Positions 76 to 27,374 of a DNA stretch of 27,553 nt are shown here, one piece after another. Numbering within the stretch: position 1 is the first letter of the stretch; each line of letters begins with the position of its first letter. This stretch comes from a virus. The notes under the pieces are model-generated. The model was not told the DNA's origin. It did not search any database and was given only the letters and a program-made list of their open reading frames with translations. Position numbers and translations under genes: made by a program. The stretch is from positions 1 to 27,553 of the IMG/VR virus record IMGVR_UViG_3300032053_000415, one strand, 5' to 3'.

Positions 76-426
76 ATGAAACAGAGTTTTTTTAAAAAAT
101 ACATAAAAGAAAAGATTCGCAGGGTTAATGATACAGCTAAACTGCGTTACATGAGTGTTAAAGAAGCAACAACACTTGCCAAAACTGAGGTGGATGTCAG
201 GCTTGCTGGTATGAATGAATTCAGAGAAGCATTAAAAGATAATAACAATTCTTTTATATATAGAAATGAATACCAAATACAAATAGATAAATTAAATGAT
301 GACATACAAAGTTTAAAAGAAACTCGTGCAAATACTGAAGGTAAAGCCTCAATGACAAGTGTTTATATTAGTTATGCTATAGCAATAATTGCATTAACAA
401 TTTCAATTATAAGGATTTTTATTTAA
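76..426 (+). CDS. Small C-terminally membrane-anchored phage protein
   Basis: Codes for 116 residues. The N-terminus is basic, residues about 62-90 are polar and helix-prone (possible coiled coil), and residues about 94-115 form one hydrophobic segment ending at the C-terminus, so it looks like a tail-anchored membrane protein. The stretch around residues 38-52 (VDVRLAGMNEFREAL) resembles a type I have seen in many phage proteins of unknown function that combine a coiled coil with a C-terminal membrane helix. No enzymatic motif is visible. Its last 8 bases overlap the end of the convergent cREC gene. No good copy of the late-promoter motif precedes it; the leader is simply A/T-rich and lacks a Shine-Dalgarno sequence. 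A role in lysis (holin or spanin-like) is possible but not shown by the sequence. Confidence 0.7.
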   Translation: MKQSFFKKYIKEKIRRVNDTAKLRYMSVKEATTLAKTEVDVRLAGMNEFREALKDNNNSFIYRNEYQIQIDKLNDDIQSLKETRANTEGKASMTSVYISYAIAIIALTISIIRIFI

Positions 427-1429
427 AATGATGCGGGAAGTACTTATTATAAGTATCAAATAATGATTTAATATTAAGACTTCCAGCAGGATTCATTGAA
501 TGTATAAGAATTGTTGCTGGAAGTTCTTTTTTATTGTCAATACAATAATTAATTAACCATTTAGCACAATCATAACCAGTTTTTTCATTAATAATTGGTA
601 TGAAAAAGTTTTTTGTATAATTTTTATTTGTAATATGTTCAATTTTACTTTTTTTTGTAATTTTTCTATTCTCATATTTCCAAATAAAACCACCAGCATA
701 TTTTCTTTCACCCCTTGCACATTTTGCAATATTTCCAAAAAATATTTTTAATTGCCTTCCAGCTTCATTAACTGAACCATATACATCAATTAAATTTTCA
801 TTTTTATCATATTGAGATACAGATTTACTATTTTTATGATTTTCGCCATATGCAGAAAAATCTCTTTCAAGTTCTCGATGTGAGTGCATAACATTTTCTG
901 AATTAGTGCACCATTCTAAATTGTCAATATTATTATTCCATCTATTTCCATCTTTATGATTAACATATTTTTTATTAGGATTTATACCATAAAAAGATTC
1001 ACACATAATTATGTGAATTGCTTTTCTACAATCATTTCCATTATTTTTCAACATCACAATTAAACCAGAAATATTTTTATTGGGCGTGAGTATATTATTA
1101 CCAGAAGTTCCTTTACATTTTTTTATTCTCTTAATTCTTCCCCAATTAGATACTTTATATATACCAACATATTCATCAATGTCTTTCCAAATCTCAATTT
1201 CTTGTCCTAAATCATGGTCAAATGAAATCATGCAAGGTATTCCCTTTTCTTCAATGGTTTTAACAAACTCCTCATAATTACGAACAATCACCCAATCTTC
1301 ACAATAATAAACCGTTTTATAATTATTTAACCAAACGCCACTTGTTGTAATATGGTGCTTGTTTAATTCCATAAACAGAAGAGAATCTTTTGGATATCTC
1401 CAATCATCAAGATATAAATTATAACCCAT
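419..1429 (-). CDS. cREC-like receiver domain protein interrupted by a NUMOD4-HNH-NUMOD1 insertion
   Basis: Codes for 336 residues in one frame. Residues 1-77 (YLDDWRYP near the start, then PCMISFDHDLG) and residues about 275-336 (EKTGYDCAKWLINYC, then HSMNPAG) are the two halves of a small receiver-like domain, the cyclic-phosphate-processing receiver (cREC) type seen in large phages; its role in RNA end processing is only a published prediction. Between them lies about 190 residues of a homing-endonuclease architecture: NUMOD4 (EIWKDIDEYVGIYKVSNWGR, 79-98), HNH_3 (VNHKDGNRWNNNIDNLEW, 156-173) and NUMOD1 (201-250). The reading frame is open across both junctions, so the product may be a fusion. 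No intein splice residues are present at the borders. Without the insert the protein would be about 145 residues. A host-type promoter lies just upstream, unlike the late-promoter genes. Confidence 0.85.
   Translation of the reverse strand: MGYNLYLDDWRYPKDSLLFMELNKHHITTSGVWLNNYKTVYYCEDWVIVRNYEEFVKTIEEKGIPCMISFDHDLGQEIEIWKDIDEYVGIYKVSNWGRIKRIKKCKGTSGNNILTPNKNISGLIVMLKNNGNDCRKAIHIIMCESFYGINPNKKYVNHKDGNRWNNNIDNLEWCTNSENVMHSHRELERDFSAYGENHKNSKSVSQYDKNENLIDVYGSVNEAGRQLKIFFGNIAKCARGERKYAGGFIWKYENRKITKKSKIEHITNKNYTKNFFIPIINEKTGYDCAKWLINYCIDNKKELPATILIHSMNPAGSLNIKSLFDTYNKYFPHHFK
620..1198 (-). mobile_element. In-frame NUMOD4-HNH-NUMOD1 homing endonuclease module inside the cREC gene
   Basis: The module covers residues about 78-270 of the host ORF. 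It starts directly after the conserved DHDLGQE of the receiver domain and ends before NEKTGYDCAKW. The domain order NUMOD4, HNH, NUMOD1 is that of free-standing and intron-borne phage homing endonucleases of about 190 residues. Almost all of the insert is coding, so there is no room for a group I intron core. The left border carries no Cys/Ser/Thr and the right border no His-Asn pair, so intein splicing is not supported. Borders are estimated from domain content only. Confidence 0.7.
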
Positions 1430-1478: not shown

Positions 1479-1489
1479 GAATCTTTTTG

Positions 1490-1562
1490 TTTCCCCCGCA
1501 GGGGTCGAACCTGCAGTCATCGGAATCAAAGTCCGATATGTTAGCCATTACACCAGAGGGAA
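1490..1562 (-). tRNA. tRNA-Gln (anticodon TTG)
   Basis: On the minus strand the acceptor TTCCCTC pairs with GGGGGAA, the anticodon stem TCGGA/TCCGA closes the loop CTTTGAT with anticodon TTG, and the T-stem GCAGG/CCTGC closes TTCGACC. Reads CAA codons. CCA is not encoded. This is the last gene of the minus-strand tRNA cluster. Confidence 0.93.
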
Positions 1563-1577
1563 ATAAGGGTGATATTA

Positions 1578-1610
1578 TGCAATAAGGGTTGAATTTCGGT
1601 ACTTATTGCA
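1578..1610. repeat. 9-bp perfect inverted repeat between tRNA genes
   Basis: TGCAATAAG (1578-1586) and CTTATTGCA (1602-1610) are perfect inverted copies around a 15-base loop. The hairpin lies between the Gln-TTG and Leu-like tRNAs and may be a processing or stability element; there is no T-run to make it a terminator. Confidence 0.5.
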
Positions 1611-1624
1611 CAATTTCACTTTTG

Positions 1625-1733
1625 TGGTCTTCACAGGTCTCGAACCTGCAATGAAGTTATTCTGTTCTATTGGAACACATGTTATTACCTTCGCCCCCTT
1701 AAAGGGTATGTCTTCCAATTCCATCAGAAGACC
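1625..1733 (-). tRNA. Aberrant tRNA-Leu-like gene (probable anticodon TAA), 109 nt
   Basis: The acceptor stem is perfect (GGTCTTC/GAAGACC), the T-arm is good (GCAGG-TTCGAGA-CCTGT), and the D-arm ATGGAATTGGAAGACAT is of the class II leucine type. The anticodon region is irregular: only CCC/GGG firmly closes the loop TTTAAGG, which would give anticodon TAA, and about 2 bases are missing compared with a normal Leu tRNA. The variable region is far too long (about 44 bases) and contains GAAG...CTTC enclosing a GTTC-CAATA-GAAC hairpin. It may be a functional variant, a tRNA with a short insertion, or a decaying gene. Confidence 0.5.
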
Positions 1734-1738
1734 ATTTG

Positions 1739-1811
1739 TTGTCTCAGCAGGAGTCGAACCTGCACTCTTTTGATTCAGAGTCAAACATGTTAGTCATTAC
1801 ACCATGAGACA
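1739..1811 (-). tRNA. tRNA-Gln (anticodon CTG)
   Basis: The acceptor stem TGTCTCA/TGAGACA is perfect, the anticodon stem TTTGA/TCAAA closes CTCTGAA with anticodon CTG, and the T-stem GCAGG/CCTGC closes TTCGACT. Reads CAG. The D-arm is closely similar to that of the other Gln tRNA at the end of the cluster, which suggests the two are duplicates with diverged anticodons. CCA is not encoded. Confidence 0.93.
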
Positions 1812-1815
1812 ATTT

Positions 1816-1851
1816 TCCGTACTTTGGCGTATTTCTACTCCGTACTTTGGC
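1816..1851. repeat. Two exact 13-bp direct repeats
   Basis: TCCGTACTTTGGC occurs at 1816-1828 and again at 1839-1851, a period of 23 bases. Both copies sit directly upstream (in minus-strand terms) of tRNA-Gln(CTG). They contain no tRNA features and could be a protein-binding or processing site; function unknown. Confidence 0.55.
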
Positions 1852-1854
1852 ATT

Positions 1855-1885
1855 TTGTCGTAAATTACGCAACAATTTGCGACAA
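1855..1885. repeat. 12-bp stem-loop in the tRNA cluster
   Basis: TTGTCGTAAATT (1855-1866) and AATTTGCGACAA (1874-1885) pair over 12 positions with one G-T wobble around the loop ACGCAAC. No T-run follows, so it is not a classical terminator. The rest of the 1812-1956 gap holds a weaker GAACG/CGTTC hairpin and no convincing gene. Confidence 0.55.
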
Positions 1886-1956
1886 GATTTTTAAAGAACG
1901 CCTTAACGTTCAGAGATTTGTAATGTTTATTTTGCAGACCCCCCTTGGCGTTTTAT

Positions 1957-2031
1957 TGGGGTATAAGGACGGTACTGACCCGTCTTCTCTTGGTCCACAG
2001 CCAAGCACATCACCTTAATGCTTCAAATACC
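1957..2031 (-). tRNA. tRNA-His (anticodon GTG), CCA possibly encoded
   Basis: The anticodon stem CTTGG/CCAAG closes CTGTGGA with anticodon GTG, and the T-stem GACGG/CCGTC is perfect. The D-arm pairs GCAT with ATGT. The acceptor begins GGTAT, matches ATACC at the 3' end and includes the extra G-1:C73 pair typical of tRNA-His, followed by CCA in the genome, unlike its neighbours. Oddities: two T-T mismatches low in the acceptor stem and the T-loop GTCAGTA instead of TTCRANY. It could be a divergent but working tRNA. Confidence 0.6.
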
Positions 2032-2038
2032 ATATTGG

Positions 2039-2124
2039 TCGGGATGGCAGGACTCGAACCTGCGATGACTTTCGTTCCCTCATGTTCCCAAAACACGCAT
2101 GCTAACCAACTACACCACATCCCG
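2039..2124 (-). tRNA. tRNA-Pro (anticodon TGG) with long variable region
   Basis: The acceptor stem CGGGATG/CATCCCG is perfect, the D-loop contains GTTGG, the anticodon stem CGTGT/ACATG closes TTTGGGA with anticodon TGG, and the T-arm is GCAGG-TTCGAGT-CCTGC. At 86 nt it carries a 17-base variable region where proline tRNAs normally have about 5. The extra bases form at most a weak AC-GAAA-GT stem. Confidence 0.8.
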
Positions 2125-14174: not shown

Positions 14175-16223
14175 ATGTCCGAAGATATTAATAAAATTAG
14201 TAAGGAAGAAGAAATATTTCCAGAACACATTCCCATAATTCCGTTTGACGTTCAAAAGGAAAGAGAAAAAGAGGAAGCCAGAAAATTAGCAAAGGAATTA
14301 AGAAAGAAAGCTGGAAATATTGAACCGATTATTGTTACTAAAGCGGGTATTGTAAAAAAAGCAAGTGAATTAACTAAATTAGAACAAGAAGATGAAATTG
14401 TTCGTTGCGGACTGAACCCAATTTATTTTATTGAAACATATTTAACTATTTTCGACCAAACCCAAGGTAAAGCAGGTTTAATAGTTCCTTTTAAATTATT
14501 TGAATTTCAAAAAGAATTAATTCAAGAATATCAAAAAAATCGATTTGTTGTTGCTAATAAATATCGTCAGGCTGGTGTTTCAACAACTACTTGCGCATTT
14601 ATTGCTTGGTATGTTATGTTTAATCGTAATAGACAGGTTGCTATTGTAGCAGATAAATTAGAAACCGCACGTGATGAATTAATGAGTGATGTTGTTGAAT
14701 TTATTGAAGGTTGTCCTGTGTGGCTTAGACCTAAGACTGGTAGAAATACTGAAAAAAATTTAAAAGATACTCAGAAATTAAAAATCTACGATAATGATTC
14801 AAGATTAGGAGCATTTGCTTCTAAAACATTACGTGGTATGACACCAACATTGTTGTTCTGGGATGAAACAGCATGGGCAGAAAAAGGTGATAAATTCTGG
14901 ACATCTGCACAACCCACCTTACAGACTGGTGGTGCTGCAATTATGGTAAGTACGCCAAGTGGGTTAGATGCTGTATTCTATAAAACCTTCATGGGTGCAA
15001 GAAATGAAGAAAACAATTTTAAAGCTGTTGAACTATGGTGGTATAACGACCCAAGATATAATAAAGGTTTATGTTGGTTAAAGAATAAAGGCAAAACGAC
15101 TGAAATAAGAATTGTTGATGATAATTGGGGCAATGAGCAGCGAATTAAAATGATGGATGATGGTTGGGAAGCCAGTTCACCTTGGTTTGAAGACCAAATT
15201 AAGAATGCAAATGGTGATATGCGAAAAATTGCACAAGAATTACTATGTAGTTTTTTGGGGTCTGGTGATAATTTTATTGCAGAAGAATATCTTAAACGTA
15301 TTCAAGAAGATGAAGTCCTACCACCAATTCGTCAAGAATATATTGATAATAATGTATGGATTTGGGAAGACCCAAAAGTAGGTGAAGAATATATAATGGC
15401 GTTAGATGCGTCACCGGGTCATGGAGAAGATAATTCAACGATAAATATTCTTAAAACTATTGAGATAATTGAAGAAAAAATTGTGACTAAGGGTGAAAAA
15501 GTAAAAAAGGTTAAAATAAAAAGACATAAAGTCGAACAGGTTCTTGAATATTATGGTAAAGTAACACCACAAATGCTTTCTGAAATTGCATATCAATATG
15601 GTAAACGATATAATAATGCATATTGTGTTGTTGATATAACTGGTGGTTATGGGGTTCAAAGTGTTGAAAAACTTCTGGAATTTGGTTATGATAATGTTCA
15701 TTATGCAGAAATAACACATAAACCTTCAAGAGATAGATTGCAGGGTTATATTAAAAAGGGTCAAAAAGTTATGCCAGATGGTACAGTAATAAATGTGGAT
15801 TTAATTCCCGGTTTCTTTATCGGCAACAACAGACCTTCAGTTGTACTTGAAATGCAAAGAGCAATTCATTTAGAAGATGTTATTATTAGGTCAATTAGAT
15901 TATTAAATGAATTAAAAACATTTGTCACGGTTGCTGGAAATCGTGTTGCAGACCACAAACGTAGCTTCCATGACGACAGTATTATGGGATTATCAATTGG
16001 TTTATATGTATTGAATTTCGATATGGTGAGATTTAAACAAAGCAAAGGTATAATTGAAAAAATGCTTAATGCAATTATTACCAACAATGATATTTCTGAA
16101 ATTGGAAAAAAACGTGATTTTAAGAACAAACCAATGATTTCGCCAAATAGTGTATCACCATTAAATCCATATCAGGCAAATGCGTGGTTATTTGATGGAA
16201 TAAAAGAGAAAAAGAAAAATTAA
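14175..16223 (+). CDS. terL: Terminase large subunit (gp17-like packaging ATPase/nuclease)
   Basis: Codes for 682 residues, slightly longer than T4 gp17 (610). Residues 1-75 are a charged N-terminal extension. The ATPase domain has a Walker A-type RQAGVSTT (131-138), Walker B LLFWDE (226-231, E231 catalytic) and the coupling motif STPSG (259-263). The RNase H-like nuclease has its acidic residues at D411 (MALDASPG), D487 (CVVDITGG) and D600/D601 (FHDDSIMG). It cuts concatemeric DNA and drives it through the portal, which is encoded next. All catalytic residues are present. A 25-residue lysine-rich insertion (KIVTKGEKVKKVKIKRHKVE, about 435-454) sits between the first two nuclease acids. No terminase small subunit is recognisable in the window. 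Confidence 0.96.
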   Translation: MSEDINKISKEEEIFPEHIPIIPFDVQKEREKEEARKLAKELRKKAGNIEPIIVTKAGIVKKASELTKLEQEDEIVRCGLNPIYFIETYLTIFDQTQGKAGLIVPFKLFEFQKELIQEYQKNRFVVANKYRQAGVSTTTCAFIAWYVMFNRNRQVAIVADKLETARDELMSDVVEFIEGCPVWLRPKTGRNTEKNLKDTQKLKIYDNDSRLGAFASKTLRGMTPTLLFWDETAWAEKGDKFWTSAQPTLQTGGAAIMVSTPSGLDAVFYKTFMGARNEENNFKAVELWWYNDPRYNKGLCWLKNKGKTTEIRIVDDNWGNEQRIKMMDDGWEASSPWFEDQIKNANGDMRKIAQELLCSFLGSGDNFIAEEYLKRIQEDEVLPPIRQEYIDNNVWIWEDPKVGEEYIMALDASPGHGEDNSTINILKTIEIIEEKIVTKGEKVKKVKIKRHKVEQVLEYYGKVTPQMLSEIAYQYGKRYNNAYCVVDITGGYGVQSVEKLLEFGYDNVHYAEITHKPSRDRLQGYIKKGQKVMPDGTVINVDLIPGFFIGNNRPSVVLEMQRAIHLEDVIIRSIRLLNELKTFVTVAGNRVADHKRSFHDDSIMGLSIGLYVLNFDMVRFKQSKGIIEKMLNAIITNNDISEIGKKRDFKNKPMISPNSVSPLNPYQANAWLFDGIKEKKKN

Positions 16224-25469: not shown

Positions 25470-27374
25470 ATGAGTAAAATATTACAAAGGGGTGAAACGG
25501 GTTTTGGGATTTTGATTGAGTCGGATGCAGGATACATTAGTAGTGATATTAATAAAGATATCCTTAACGAAAATTTTGAATTAAAACCAAACGAACCAGT
25601 ATTAGTTAATTGTATTCTACAAAAATGGGGTGTTAAGAATAAAAATGGTCGTATATACCCTAAAGACGTTTTAATCCCACAAGTACAAATATATCAAGAG
25701 TTAGTAAACACAAATAGTGCTGTAAGTGAGGCAGACCATCCTGACTGCGTAAATGCTTCAGAATCAATGATTTGTACAAAAAATGGGTGGAAATGGATTA
25801 AAGATATTTCTGATGATGAAGAAATATTGACGATAAACACAAACACAAATCAAATAGAAATTCAAAAAATAGAAAAGAAAATATATTTACCATATAAGGG
25901 TAAGATGTATAAATTTTCTGGACAAAATATTGATTTAACTGTTACTGGTAATCATAGATTTTTAGTTGAAAATAAGAGGGGTGAGAGAACATATGTGTTT
26001 GCTAAAGATATTTATGACAATAAAAATAATGTTTTATCATCGGGTCAACATAAAATATTAAAAACGGGAGATTGGACTGGAACACGTTCTGAATATTTCA
26101 CACTAAACGGTGTTGATAAAACCGACCTAAGTTTTAATTTAAAACACGAATTAATTGATAGATATACTAAATCAATTGATATCAAATCAGAGGATTGGTA
26201 TGCTTTTATGGGTATTTATCTGTCTGAAGGGCATTGTACTGGAGCAAAAACTAATCAATATAAATCTAATGGATATAATGTTGTTATTACTCAAGTAAAA
26301 TTAGAAACAAAAAATAAAATTGTTGATTTATTAAATCGAATGCCTTTTGATTATTGGATTGATGAGCATGATAATGGAAAATGCCAATATCATATAAATG
26401 ATGCAAGACTTTATAATTATTTATATCCATTAGGATATTCATATAACAAATATATTCCAACAGATTTAAAACAAACATCAATTGATTTATTACAAATATT
26501 TTTTGACTGGTTTATGCTTGGTGATGGACGAAGTGTTAAATCAAAACATGTTAATTGGTCAAATAAAGAGTCTGTGTTTACCATTTCAGAACAACTAATT
26601 AATGACCTACATGAAATATTAATTAAAATTGGTGGAAATGGAAATATTACAACATATCAACCCAAAGATAGATATTTGAATGATTATATAATGGTGAAGA
26701 AAAAAGTCGTTTTATCTGATGGAACTACCGAATATATATCTGAGGAAATTAAAACCCCAAGATTGGTAAAAGCAGAAAATAGTCATTTACAGTATAATTT
26801 AAACATATCAAAAAGAAAAAATATTTGGTTAGATAAAAGAAGTATTAAAGTTGAAGAAATTGATTTTAACGGAGATATCGCTTGTGTTAGAGTGGCAAAC
26901 GGTAACTTTATGGTTAAAGTAAATGGAAAATCACATTGGACTGGTAATTCGTCAATTATCTCGCTTCAAAATATCTCACATATGATTACTAAAATGTGGT
27001 GGGGTAAGGGTGAACAAGAAAATGTATTATATGGTCAATTGAAGTTGATTGTCAGTCCCGGTTACATTAAATATGGGGTGATTTCTGTAGTTGGTGATAA
27101 GATTGTATTGTACTTGCAGAATAAAATTAAATTAGGTGTTTCAAGTCGTGGAGTTGGTACACTTAAAGAAATTAATGGTGAAAATCTTGTTCAGAATGAT
27201 TTTGAATTAATTGGTTTTGACTTAGTTGCAACACCAAGCACCCCGGGAGCATTTTTATTTCCAGTTAAACGTGGTGATATTAATTTTGGTGAAAATTATA
27301 TAAATAAAGATGGTATACTTCTTAAGGAAGAAGAGGGAAAGATAATTACAGCACTTAATAAATTCTTATTATAA
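25470..27374 (+). CDS. Prohead protease (gp21-like) containing an intein
   Basis: Codes for 634 residues, of which 93-493 are an intein; the spliced product would be 233 residues, close to T4 gp21 (212). N-extein: GVKNKNGRIYPKDVL (54-68) and SEADHPD (86-92), whose H90 is the expected catalytic His of the herpesvirus-assemblin-like fold. C-extein: SSIISLQNISHMITKMWW and KLGVSSRGVGTL, where S558 or S559 is the expected nucleophile, then FDLVATPSTPGAF. This enzyme cleaves core, scaffold and capsid proteins at LxE-type sites during head maturation. It is the likely processing enzyme for the leaders seen at 2479, 7504, 8744, 9239 and perhaps 10647. Activity must await protein splicing, since the intein separates His from Ser. 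Confidence 0.92.
   Translation: MSKILQRGETGFGILIESDAGYISSDINKDILNENFELKPNEPVLVNCILQKWGVKNKNGRIYPKDVLIPQVQIYQELVNTNSAVSEADHPDCVNASESMICTKNGWKWIKDISDDEEILTINTNTNQIEIQKIEKKIYLPYKGKMYKFSGQNIDLTVTGNHRFLVENKRGERTYVFAKDIYDNKNNVLSSGQHKILKTGDWTGTRSEYFTLNGVDKTDLSFNLKHELIDRYTKSIDIKSEDWYAFMGIYLSEGHCTGAKTNQYKSNGYNVVITQVKLETKNKIVDLLNRMPFDYWIDEHDNGKCQYHINDARLYNYLYPLGYSYNKYIPTDLKQTSIDLLQIFFDWFMLGDGRSVKSKHVNWSNKESVFTISEQLINDLHEILIKIGGNGNITTYQPKDRYLNDYIMVKKKVVLSDGTTEYISEEIKTPRLVKAENSHLQYNLNISKRKNIWLDKRSIKVEEIDFNGDIACVRVANGNFMVKVNGKSHWTGNSSIISLQNISHMITKMWWGKGEQENVLYGQLKLIVSPGYIKYGVISVVGDKIVLYLQNKIKLGVSSRGVGTLKEINGENLVQNDFELIGFDLVATPSTPGAFLFPVKRGDINFGENYINKDGILLKEEEGKIITALNKFLL
25746..26948 (+). mobile_element. 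LAGLIDADG intein in the prohead protease
   Basis: 401 residues, C93 to N493 of the precursor, flanked by HPD and the +1 residue S494. Splicing block A is CVNASESMICTKNGW; block B is TVTGNHRFL (TxxH, H162); block F is GDIACVRVANGNFMV; block G is HWTGN followed by S. The penultimate residue is Gly, not the usual His, which is known from a few active inteins. AFMGIYLSEG (245-254) and FFDWFMLGDG (344-353) are the two LAGLIDADG helices, each ending in an acidic residue, so the homing endonuclease looks intact. Confidence 0.93.

What the first reader, a model, noticed from the sequence alone, without database searches (positions are those of the whole stretch)
419..1429. Homing-endonuclease module inserted in frame inside a receiver-like domain
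Both halves of the cREC domain are intact and the NUMOD4-HNH-NUMOD1 block lies exactly after the conserved DHDLG motif, with the frame open across both borders. It is not a recognisable intein (no splice residues) and the insert is too fully coding for a group I intron. A domain that tolerates a 190-residue endonuclease as a loop, or an uncharacterised splicing route, would be unusual.
Basis: partly seen in the sequence, partly recalled or inferred. Interest (0 to 1): 0.6.

Follow-up and report, generated by a model that had tools for sequence, protein, structure and literature searches.

The report
Homing endonuclease nested inside phage enzyme
A phage gene for a small enzyme (predicted to process cyclic phosphates) carries a complete DNA-cutting "selfish" endonuclease in one of its surface loops, read through without any sign of RNA or protein splicing; relatives show the same gene invaded repeatedly and in two different loops, so it looks like a mobile element that survives by being tolerated rather than by being cut out.

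Summary
The minus-strand ORF 1429..419 encodes 336 aa: a cREC domain (PF20274) split after FDHDL, with a complete I-HmuI-like NUMOD4-HNH-NUMOD1 endonuclease plus a short tail (about window 596-1201) in between. The insert is not native. About 60 distinct uninterrupted cRECs have only a 5-31 residue variable loop there. One (L018) is an empty allele at the syntenic locus, 83-89% identical in DNA up to both borders. The fused frame is conserved in five further diverged site-A lineages (aligned identity 45-68%), with purifying selection on all three segments. Fused hosts do not form one clade (AU p = 2.5e-5). A related HNH sits in a second loop of cREC in L248/L339-L341.

No intron signal appears (Rfam, folding), whereas a control, the SPO1 I-HmuI intron, is detected. 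No Hint domain or intein splice residues appear, whereas the window's own prohead-protease intein is detected. AlphaFold places both domains confidently with a flexible C-side linker. Best reading: an in-frame homing endonuclease tolerated as a loop-inserted domain and spreading among cREC genes. The kind has a precedent (a lone LAGLIDADG in a phage methylase); HNH-in-cREC, repeated and at two sites, is a new variant. Homing, lack of splicing and cREC activity are inferred, not shown.

The parts
419..1429 (-). fused cREC-HNH ORF, 336 aa, stop included
   Evidence: same frame open in L001, L002-L006, L008, L007, L009, L247
1205..1429 (-). cREC N-terminal half, residues 1-75 (LDD...FDHDL; beta1 to beta3)
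   Evidence: Pfam PF20274 profile 1-46; AlphaFold strands 4-7, 46-49, 67-70
596..1201 (-). inserted unit, about residues 77-278
   Evidence: blastn with the syntenic empty allele L018 stops at 1211 and resumes at 595; loop is 5-31 aa in uninterrupted homologues
1076..1195 (-). NUMOD4, residues 79-118
   Evidence: PF07463 E=6.3e-8
887..1021 (-). HNH_3 nuclease motif, residues 137-181; I-HmuI H75/N87/N96 align with H158/N170/N179
   Evidence: PF13392 E=8.9e-15; 1u3e alignment; residues invariant in fused set
680..826 (-). NUMOD1 / I-HmuI-like DNA-binding helix-turn-helix, residues 202-250
   Evidence: PF07453 and PF22083
590..670 (-). tail after NUMOD1, residues 254-280, ending FFIP; low-confidence linker; shared by inserts at sites A and B
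422..586 (-). cREC C-terminal half, residues 282-336 (EKTGYDCAKWL...HSMNP...)
   Evidence: second cREC_REC stretch; 89% DNA identity with empty allele L018 over window 437-595; AlphaFold helix 285-298, strand 306-309, helix 314-330

Best explanation
An I-HmuI-type NUMOD4-HNH-NUMOD1 homing endonuclease has lodged in frame in the loop between strand 3 and helix 3 of a phage cREC domain. It is translated as an internal domain of one 336-residue protein. It is not removed by RNA or protein splicing; it persists because the loop is naturally variable and because two peptide joints let both domains fold side by side. As a nuclease it would nick or cut cREC genes lacking the insert near the conserved FDHDL and EKTGxxCAKWL codons, and repair copies the insert into them (homing). 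Shown here: the domain architecture, the empty alleles, repeated occurrence in unrelated cREC lineages, a second insertion loop in a related phage group, selection on both parts, and absence of known splicing signals. Inferred: nuclease activity, target site, absence of splicing in vivo, and retained cREC activity.
For: Empty versus occupied alleles: about 60 distinct uninterrupted viral cRECs plus Chryseobacterium ones have a 5-31 aa loop at this place; L018 is the syntenic empty allele, with 89% and 83% DNA identity on the two sides of the insert. Repeated presence: six diverged site-A fusions; on the cREC tree site-A presence needs 6 changes, one fused clade is rejected (AU p=2.5e-5), and so is a clade of the window+L001+L002+L007 hosts (p=1.1e-5). 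Second site: L248, L339, L340 and L341 carry a related HNH, with the same FFIPD tail, after the WLVEHC helix while their site-A loop is uninterrupted. Selection: computable dN/dS 0.10-0.49 in N half, insert and C half, with synonymous sites near saturation. The nuclease is complete: phmmer to I-HmuI (1u3e) 81-253 vs 3-171, E=8e-9; Foldseek E=1.8e-10, with receiver domains as weak further hits. Both domains are predicted well (mean pLDDT 85; linker about 50). Not an intron: no Rfam match while SPO1's I-HmuI intron gives RF00028 at E=0.001 outside its ORF; folding z=+0.66. Not an intein: no Hint match and no conserved splice residues. No conserved in-frame start near the NUMOD4 start, so the nuclease is apparently made as a fusion.
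Against: Among identical residues, codons in the insert are not more alike than in the host after allowing for composition, so recent transfer is not shown by divergence; scattered losses through recombination with empty alleles could contribute. The host tree has only 123 columns and many open forks. The two-site argument rests on one phage group (98% identical contigs), and its AlphaFold model is poor (pLDDT 65). A novel splicing route cannot be excluded by sequence. Cleavage of the empty allele is untested.
Confidence: 0.75

Rival explanations
1. Domesticated two-domain effector: the cREC-HNH fusion is kept because the receiver-like domain now controls or targets the nuclease, for example as a weapon against co-infecting phages or host DNA.
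For: Purifying selection on both parts over large divergence with intact frames; catalytic residues of both domains invariant; repeated occurrence in this one host family among the relatives fetched.
Against: Patchy presence with close empty alleles at the same locus, polyphyly and a second insertion loop look like a mobile element rather than a maintained architecture; the insert is a standard homing endonuclease with no extra domain.
Confidence: 0.12
2. Uncharacterised or highly derived splicing (RNA or protein) removes the insert, restoring a roughly 130-residue cREC.
For: The insert begins just after FDHDL and ends just before the conserved EKTG segment, and I-HmuI, its nearest solved relative, is intron-borne.
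Against: No intron core in Rfam while the SPO1 control is found; no stable fold (z=+0.66); coding constraint across the whole insert; no Hint domain or conserved nucleophile/Asn at the borders; flanking residues differ between lineages.
Confidence: 0.08
3. The insertion inactivates cREC and the gene is now only a carrier for the endonuclease.
For: The common ADEHY stretch after DHDL is lost in fused proteins.
Against: Both cREC halves stay under purifying selection with invariant catalytic residues in six fused lineages, and the HY residues are also missing in some uninterrupted cRECs such as L153.
Confidence: 0.05

Closest known systems
Lone LAGLIDADG endonuclease inserted in frame in actinophage DNA methylases (Taj_79; Gosselin et al. 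2023, PMC9957025)
   Same: In-frame homing endonuclease inside a phage enzyme, no detectable intein or intron, predicted to fold as its own domain beside the host
   Different: LAGLIDADG rather than HNH; methylase host; divergence mostly follows the host (vertical), whereas here fused hosts are polyphyletic and two loops are used
ShiLan domain, hidden HNH in a phage methylase (Arsenault et al. 2025, PMC11855218)
   Same: Mobile HNH inside a phage enzyme gene, host frame open, no splicing signals
   Different: There the HNH is read out of frame with the host; here HNH and host share one frame and one polypeptide
I-HmuI of Bacillus phage SPO1 (PDB 1u3e)
   Same: The insert matches it nearly end to end, with H75/N87/N96 equivalents present
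   Different: I-HmuI is a free-standing ORF inside a group I intron of DNA polymerase with the intron core outside the ORF; here there is no intron and no own start codon
cREC domain proteins (PF20274; PMC7824862, PMC9503650)
   Same: Both halves, all signature residues
   Different: No HNH insert is mentioned in the passages read, and the uninterrupted members examined here lack one; the function of cREC itself is only predicted
Cas9 (HNH inside RuvC), from general knowledge
   Same: HNH nuclease as an insertion domain in another enzyme fold
   Different: Cas9 is a stable RNA-guided effector; this is patchily distributed and looks like a homing element

Membership tests
cREC (PF20274) | receiver-like fold with paired acidic residues, DHDL and the Lys/HSxNP segment | tested here: met
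   Pfam E=1.3e-19 in two stretches; invariant D8 D9 D71 K290 S311; weak receiver-domain Foldseek hits
cREC (PF20274) | cyclic-phosphate processing activity | not testable with these tools
   Activity is predicted only in the literature (PMC9503650)
HNH homing endonuclease of the I-HmuI type | NUMOD4 + HNH + NUMOD1 modules with catalytic His/Asn | tested here: met
   Pfam, 1u3e alignment, Foldseek E=1.8e-10
HNH homing endonuclease of the I-HmuI type | cleaves the allele lacking the insert and is copied into it | not testable with these tools
   Only indirect: empty alleles and polyphyly
Intein | Hint splicing domain with N-terminal Cys/Ser and C-terminal Asn + Cys/Ser/Thr | tested here: not met
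   No Intein_splicing match in any fused protein, no such residues at the borders; the control intein in the same window is detected
Group I intron | catalytic core RNA and an ORF not continuous with both exons | tested here: not met
   No Rfam match versus control L405; frame continuous through both borders in six site-A lineages
ShiLan-type hidden HNH | HNH encoded out of frame with the host | tested here: not met
   HNH is in the host frame
In-frame lone homing endonuclease domain (Taj_79 type) | endonuclease in host frame, no splicing element, folds as a separate domain | tested here: met
   absence of splicing in vivo not tested

The most novel reading that the evidence does not exclude
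A class of homing elements that needs no splicing at all: HNH nucleases that repeatedly enter variable loops of a small phage enzyme and spread among its alleles as tolerated internal domains, possibly with nuclease and receiver-like domain influencing each other.
Probability: 0.35. Interest if true: 0.7.

Novelty: new variant of a known kind. Interest (0 to 1): 0.52.

Why it matters
Homing endonucleases are usually thought to need an intron or intein to hide in if they enter a coding sequence. This gene family offers occupied and empty alleles at a syntenic locus, six diverged occupied site-A lineages and a second insertion loop, so it can be tested directly whether a mobile nuclease can persist simply by being tolerated as a protein loop, and whether the host enzyme (whose cREC activity is itself unproven) still works. 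It also marks a cREC loop that accepts a 200-residue domain, useful for protein engineering.

Tried and rejected
(1) PhiCrAssBcn phages appeared to cover 88% of the query, but the extension runs through a stop codon and out of frame; they hold a free-standing HNH without cREC. Those were the only phage records covering at least 80% of the query, so no fusion was found in the 50,697 annotated phage records. (2) L328, found by a DNA pattern, is an unrelated ORF with a chance match. (3) In-frame insertion of close HNH relatives into other host genes: the fetched ORFs were listed for N- or C-terminal extensions; no other clear host was seen, only cREC. (4) Evidence that the insert is younger than its host from codon identity: not significant once composition is considered. 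(5) A separately translated HNH from an internal start: no conserved start codon. (6) A stable RNA structure in the insert: z=+0.66. (7) Plasmid collection: no record covering 80% of the query; the hits listed are HNH/NUMOD4 proteins.

Full report
What is there. The minus-strand ORF 1429..419 (336 aa) is open from an ATG to a stop. Pfam finds one cREC domain in two pieces and, between them, NUMOD4, HNH_3 and NUMOD1 / I-HmuI NUMOD-like. phmmer against solved structures returns a single hit, I-HmuI (1u3e), aligned almost end to end (query 81-253, chain 3-171, E=8e-9), and counting along that alignment I-HmuI H75, N87 and N96 fall on H158, N170 and N179, which are invariant in the five fused proteins aligned. 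That these are I-HmuI active-site residues is from general knowledge.

Borders and empty alleles. In about 60 distinct uninterrupted viral cRECs and in Chryseobacterium chromosomes the stretch between FDHDL and (E)KTG is a variable loop of 5-31 residues, never longer among those examined. L018 holds an uninterrupted cREC in a neighbourhood that matches the window's (shared tRNA region and the genes around window 4.2-5.3 kb). Its DNA matches the window at 89% over 437-595 and 83% over 1211-1294, and the match stops on both sides of the insert. In fused proteins the native loop is replaced: the frequent ADEHY motif is absent.

Relatives with the insert. Full-length, in-frame fusions occur in L001, L002 (with identical contigs L003-L006 and L008), L007, L009 and L247. 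In L248 and its near-copies L339-L341 the site-A loop is an uninterrupted native one, while a related HNH unit sits further on, after the KEKTGLDCARWLVEHC helix and before the HSHNPVG strand. Inserts at both sites share a tail ending FFIP(D) that is absent from the free-standing relatives aligned, which suggests the tail belongs to the mobile unit.

Evolution. On a cREC-only tree the site-A hosts are scattered among uninterrupted ones: L009 with L140, L002 with L105, L001 with L103/L104, L247 with L125. Six changes are needed, and the AU test rejects one clade of all six (p=2.5e-5) and also of window+L001+L002+L007 (p=1.1e-5); a window+L018 pairing is not rejected (p=0.26). Pairwise dN/dS, where computable, is 0.10-0.49 in the N half, the insert and the C half, so both proteins are under purifying selection. 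A codon-identity comparison did not show the insert to be younger than the host, so the timing of transfers is open and losses through recombination with empty alleles may contribute.

Splicing. Rfam at gathering threshold or relaxed E-value shows no intron in the window gene or in the related loci. As a positive control the SPO1 I-HmuI intron (L405) gives RF00028 at E=0.001, and its core lies upstream of the HNH ORF. The insert RNA is no more stable than shuffles (z=+0.66). No fused protein has a Hint domain and the border residues are not those of inteins, while an intein-like insert in the prohead protease of this same window is picked up by the same scan. No in-frame start codon near the beginning of the nuclease is conserved, so the nuclease is presumably made as part of the fusion.

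Structure. AlphaFold2 on a 39-sequence alignment gives mean pLDDT 85. The receiver-like elements (strands 4-7, 46-49, 67-70; helix 285-298; strand 306-309; helix 314-330) and the HNH module are mostly near or above 90, and the C-side linker around 261-280 is near 50. Foldseek finds I-HmuI (E=1.8e-10) and, weakly, response-regulator receiver domains. This fits two domains joined by loops. The model of the site-B protein is poor (pLDDT 65) and is not used as evidence.

Comparison with what is known. The closest precedent is the lone LAGLIDADG in frame in actinophage methylases (PMC9957025); the ShiLan element (PMC11855218) is similar but out of frame. The cREC function is a literature prediction (PMC7824862, PMC9503650). 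No annotated phage record carries a full fusion at the sensitivity used: the only records covering at least 80% of the query were crAss-like phages with a spurious extension. The phenomenon is therefore a new variant of a rarely described kind, made stronger by recurrence, two sites and a syntenic empty allele.

Verdict. Function as a homing endonuclease, lack of splicing in vivo and cREC activity remain inferred.

Noticed in passing
25470-27374 (+): Prohead protease (Peptidase_S77, two stretches) interrupted by an intein-like segment (Intein_splicing E=1e-6 below the curated cut-off, weak LAGLIDADG_3), apparently from CVNASESMICT to HWTGN|S.
   Followed up: partly
1299-1363 (-): The window's cREC N half carries about 16 extra residues (HHITTSGVWLNNYKT region) that the fused and uninterrupted relatives lack; AlphaFold confidence is low there.
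   Followed up: no
L248:4001-5089; L339-L341: A related HNH unit sits in a second loop of cREC (between helix 3 and strand 4) in near-identical contigs from three metagenomes.
   Followed up: partly
1489-2124 (-): Three tRNA genes (Gln-TTG, Gln-CTG, Pro-TGG) lie next to the fused gene; related loci L001, L002, L007 also carry several tRNAs and L018 matches part of the tRNA stretch; L002 also has a tmRNA.
   Followed up: no
14175-16223 (+): Large terminase with only about 26-27% identity to the nearest annotated phages (Microcystis and Flavobacterium phages), so the phage group looks poorly represented in annotated collections.
   Followed up: no
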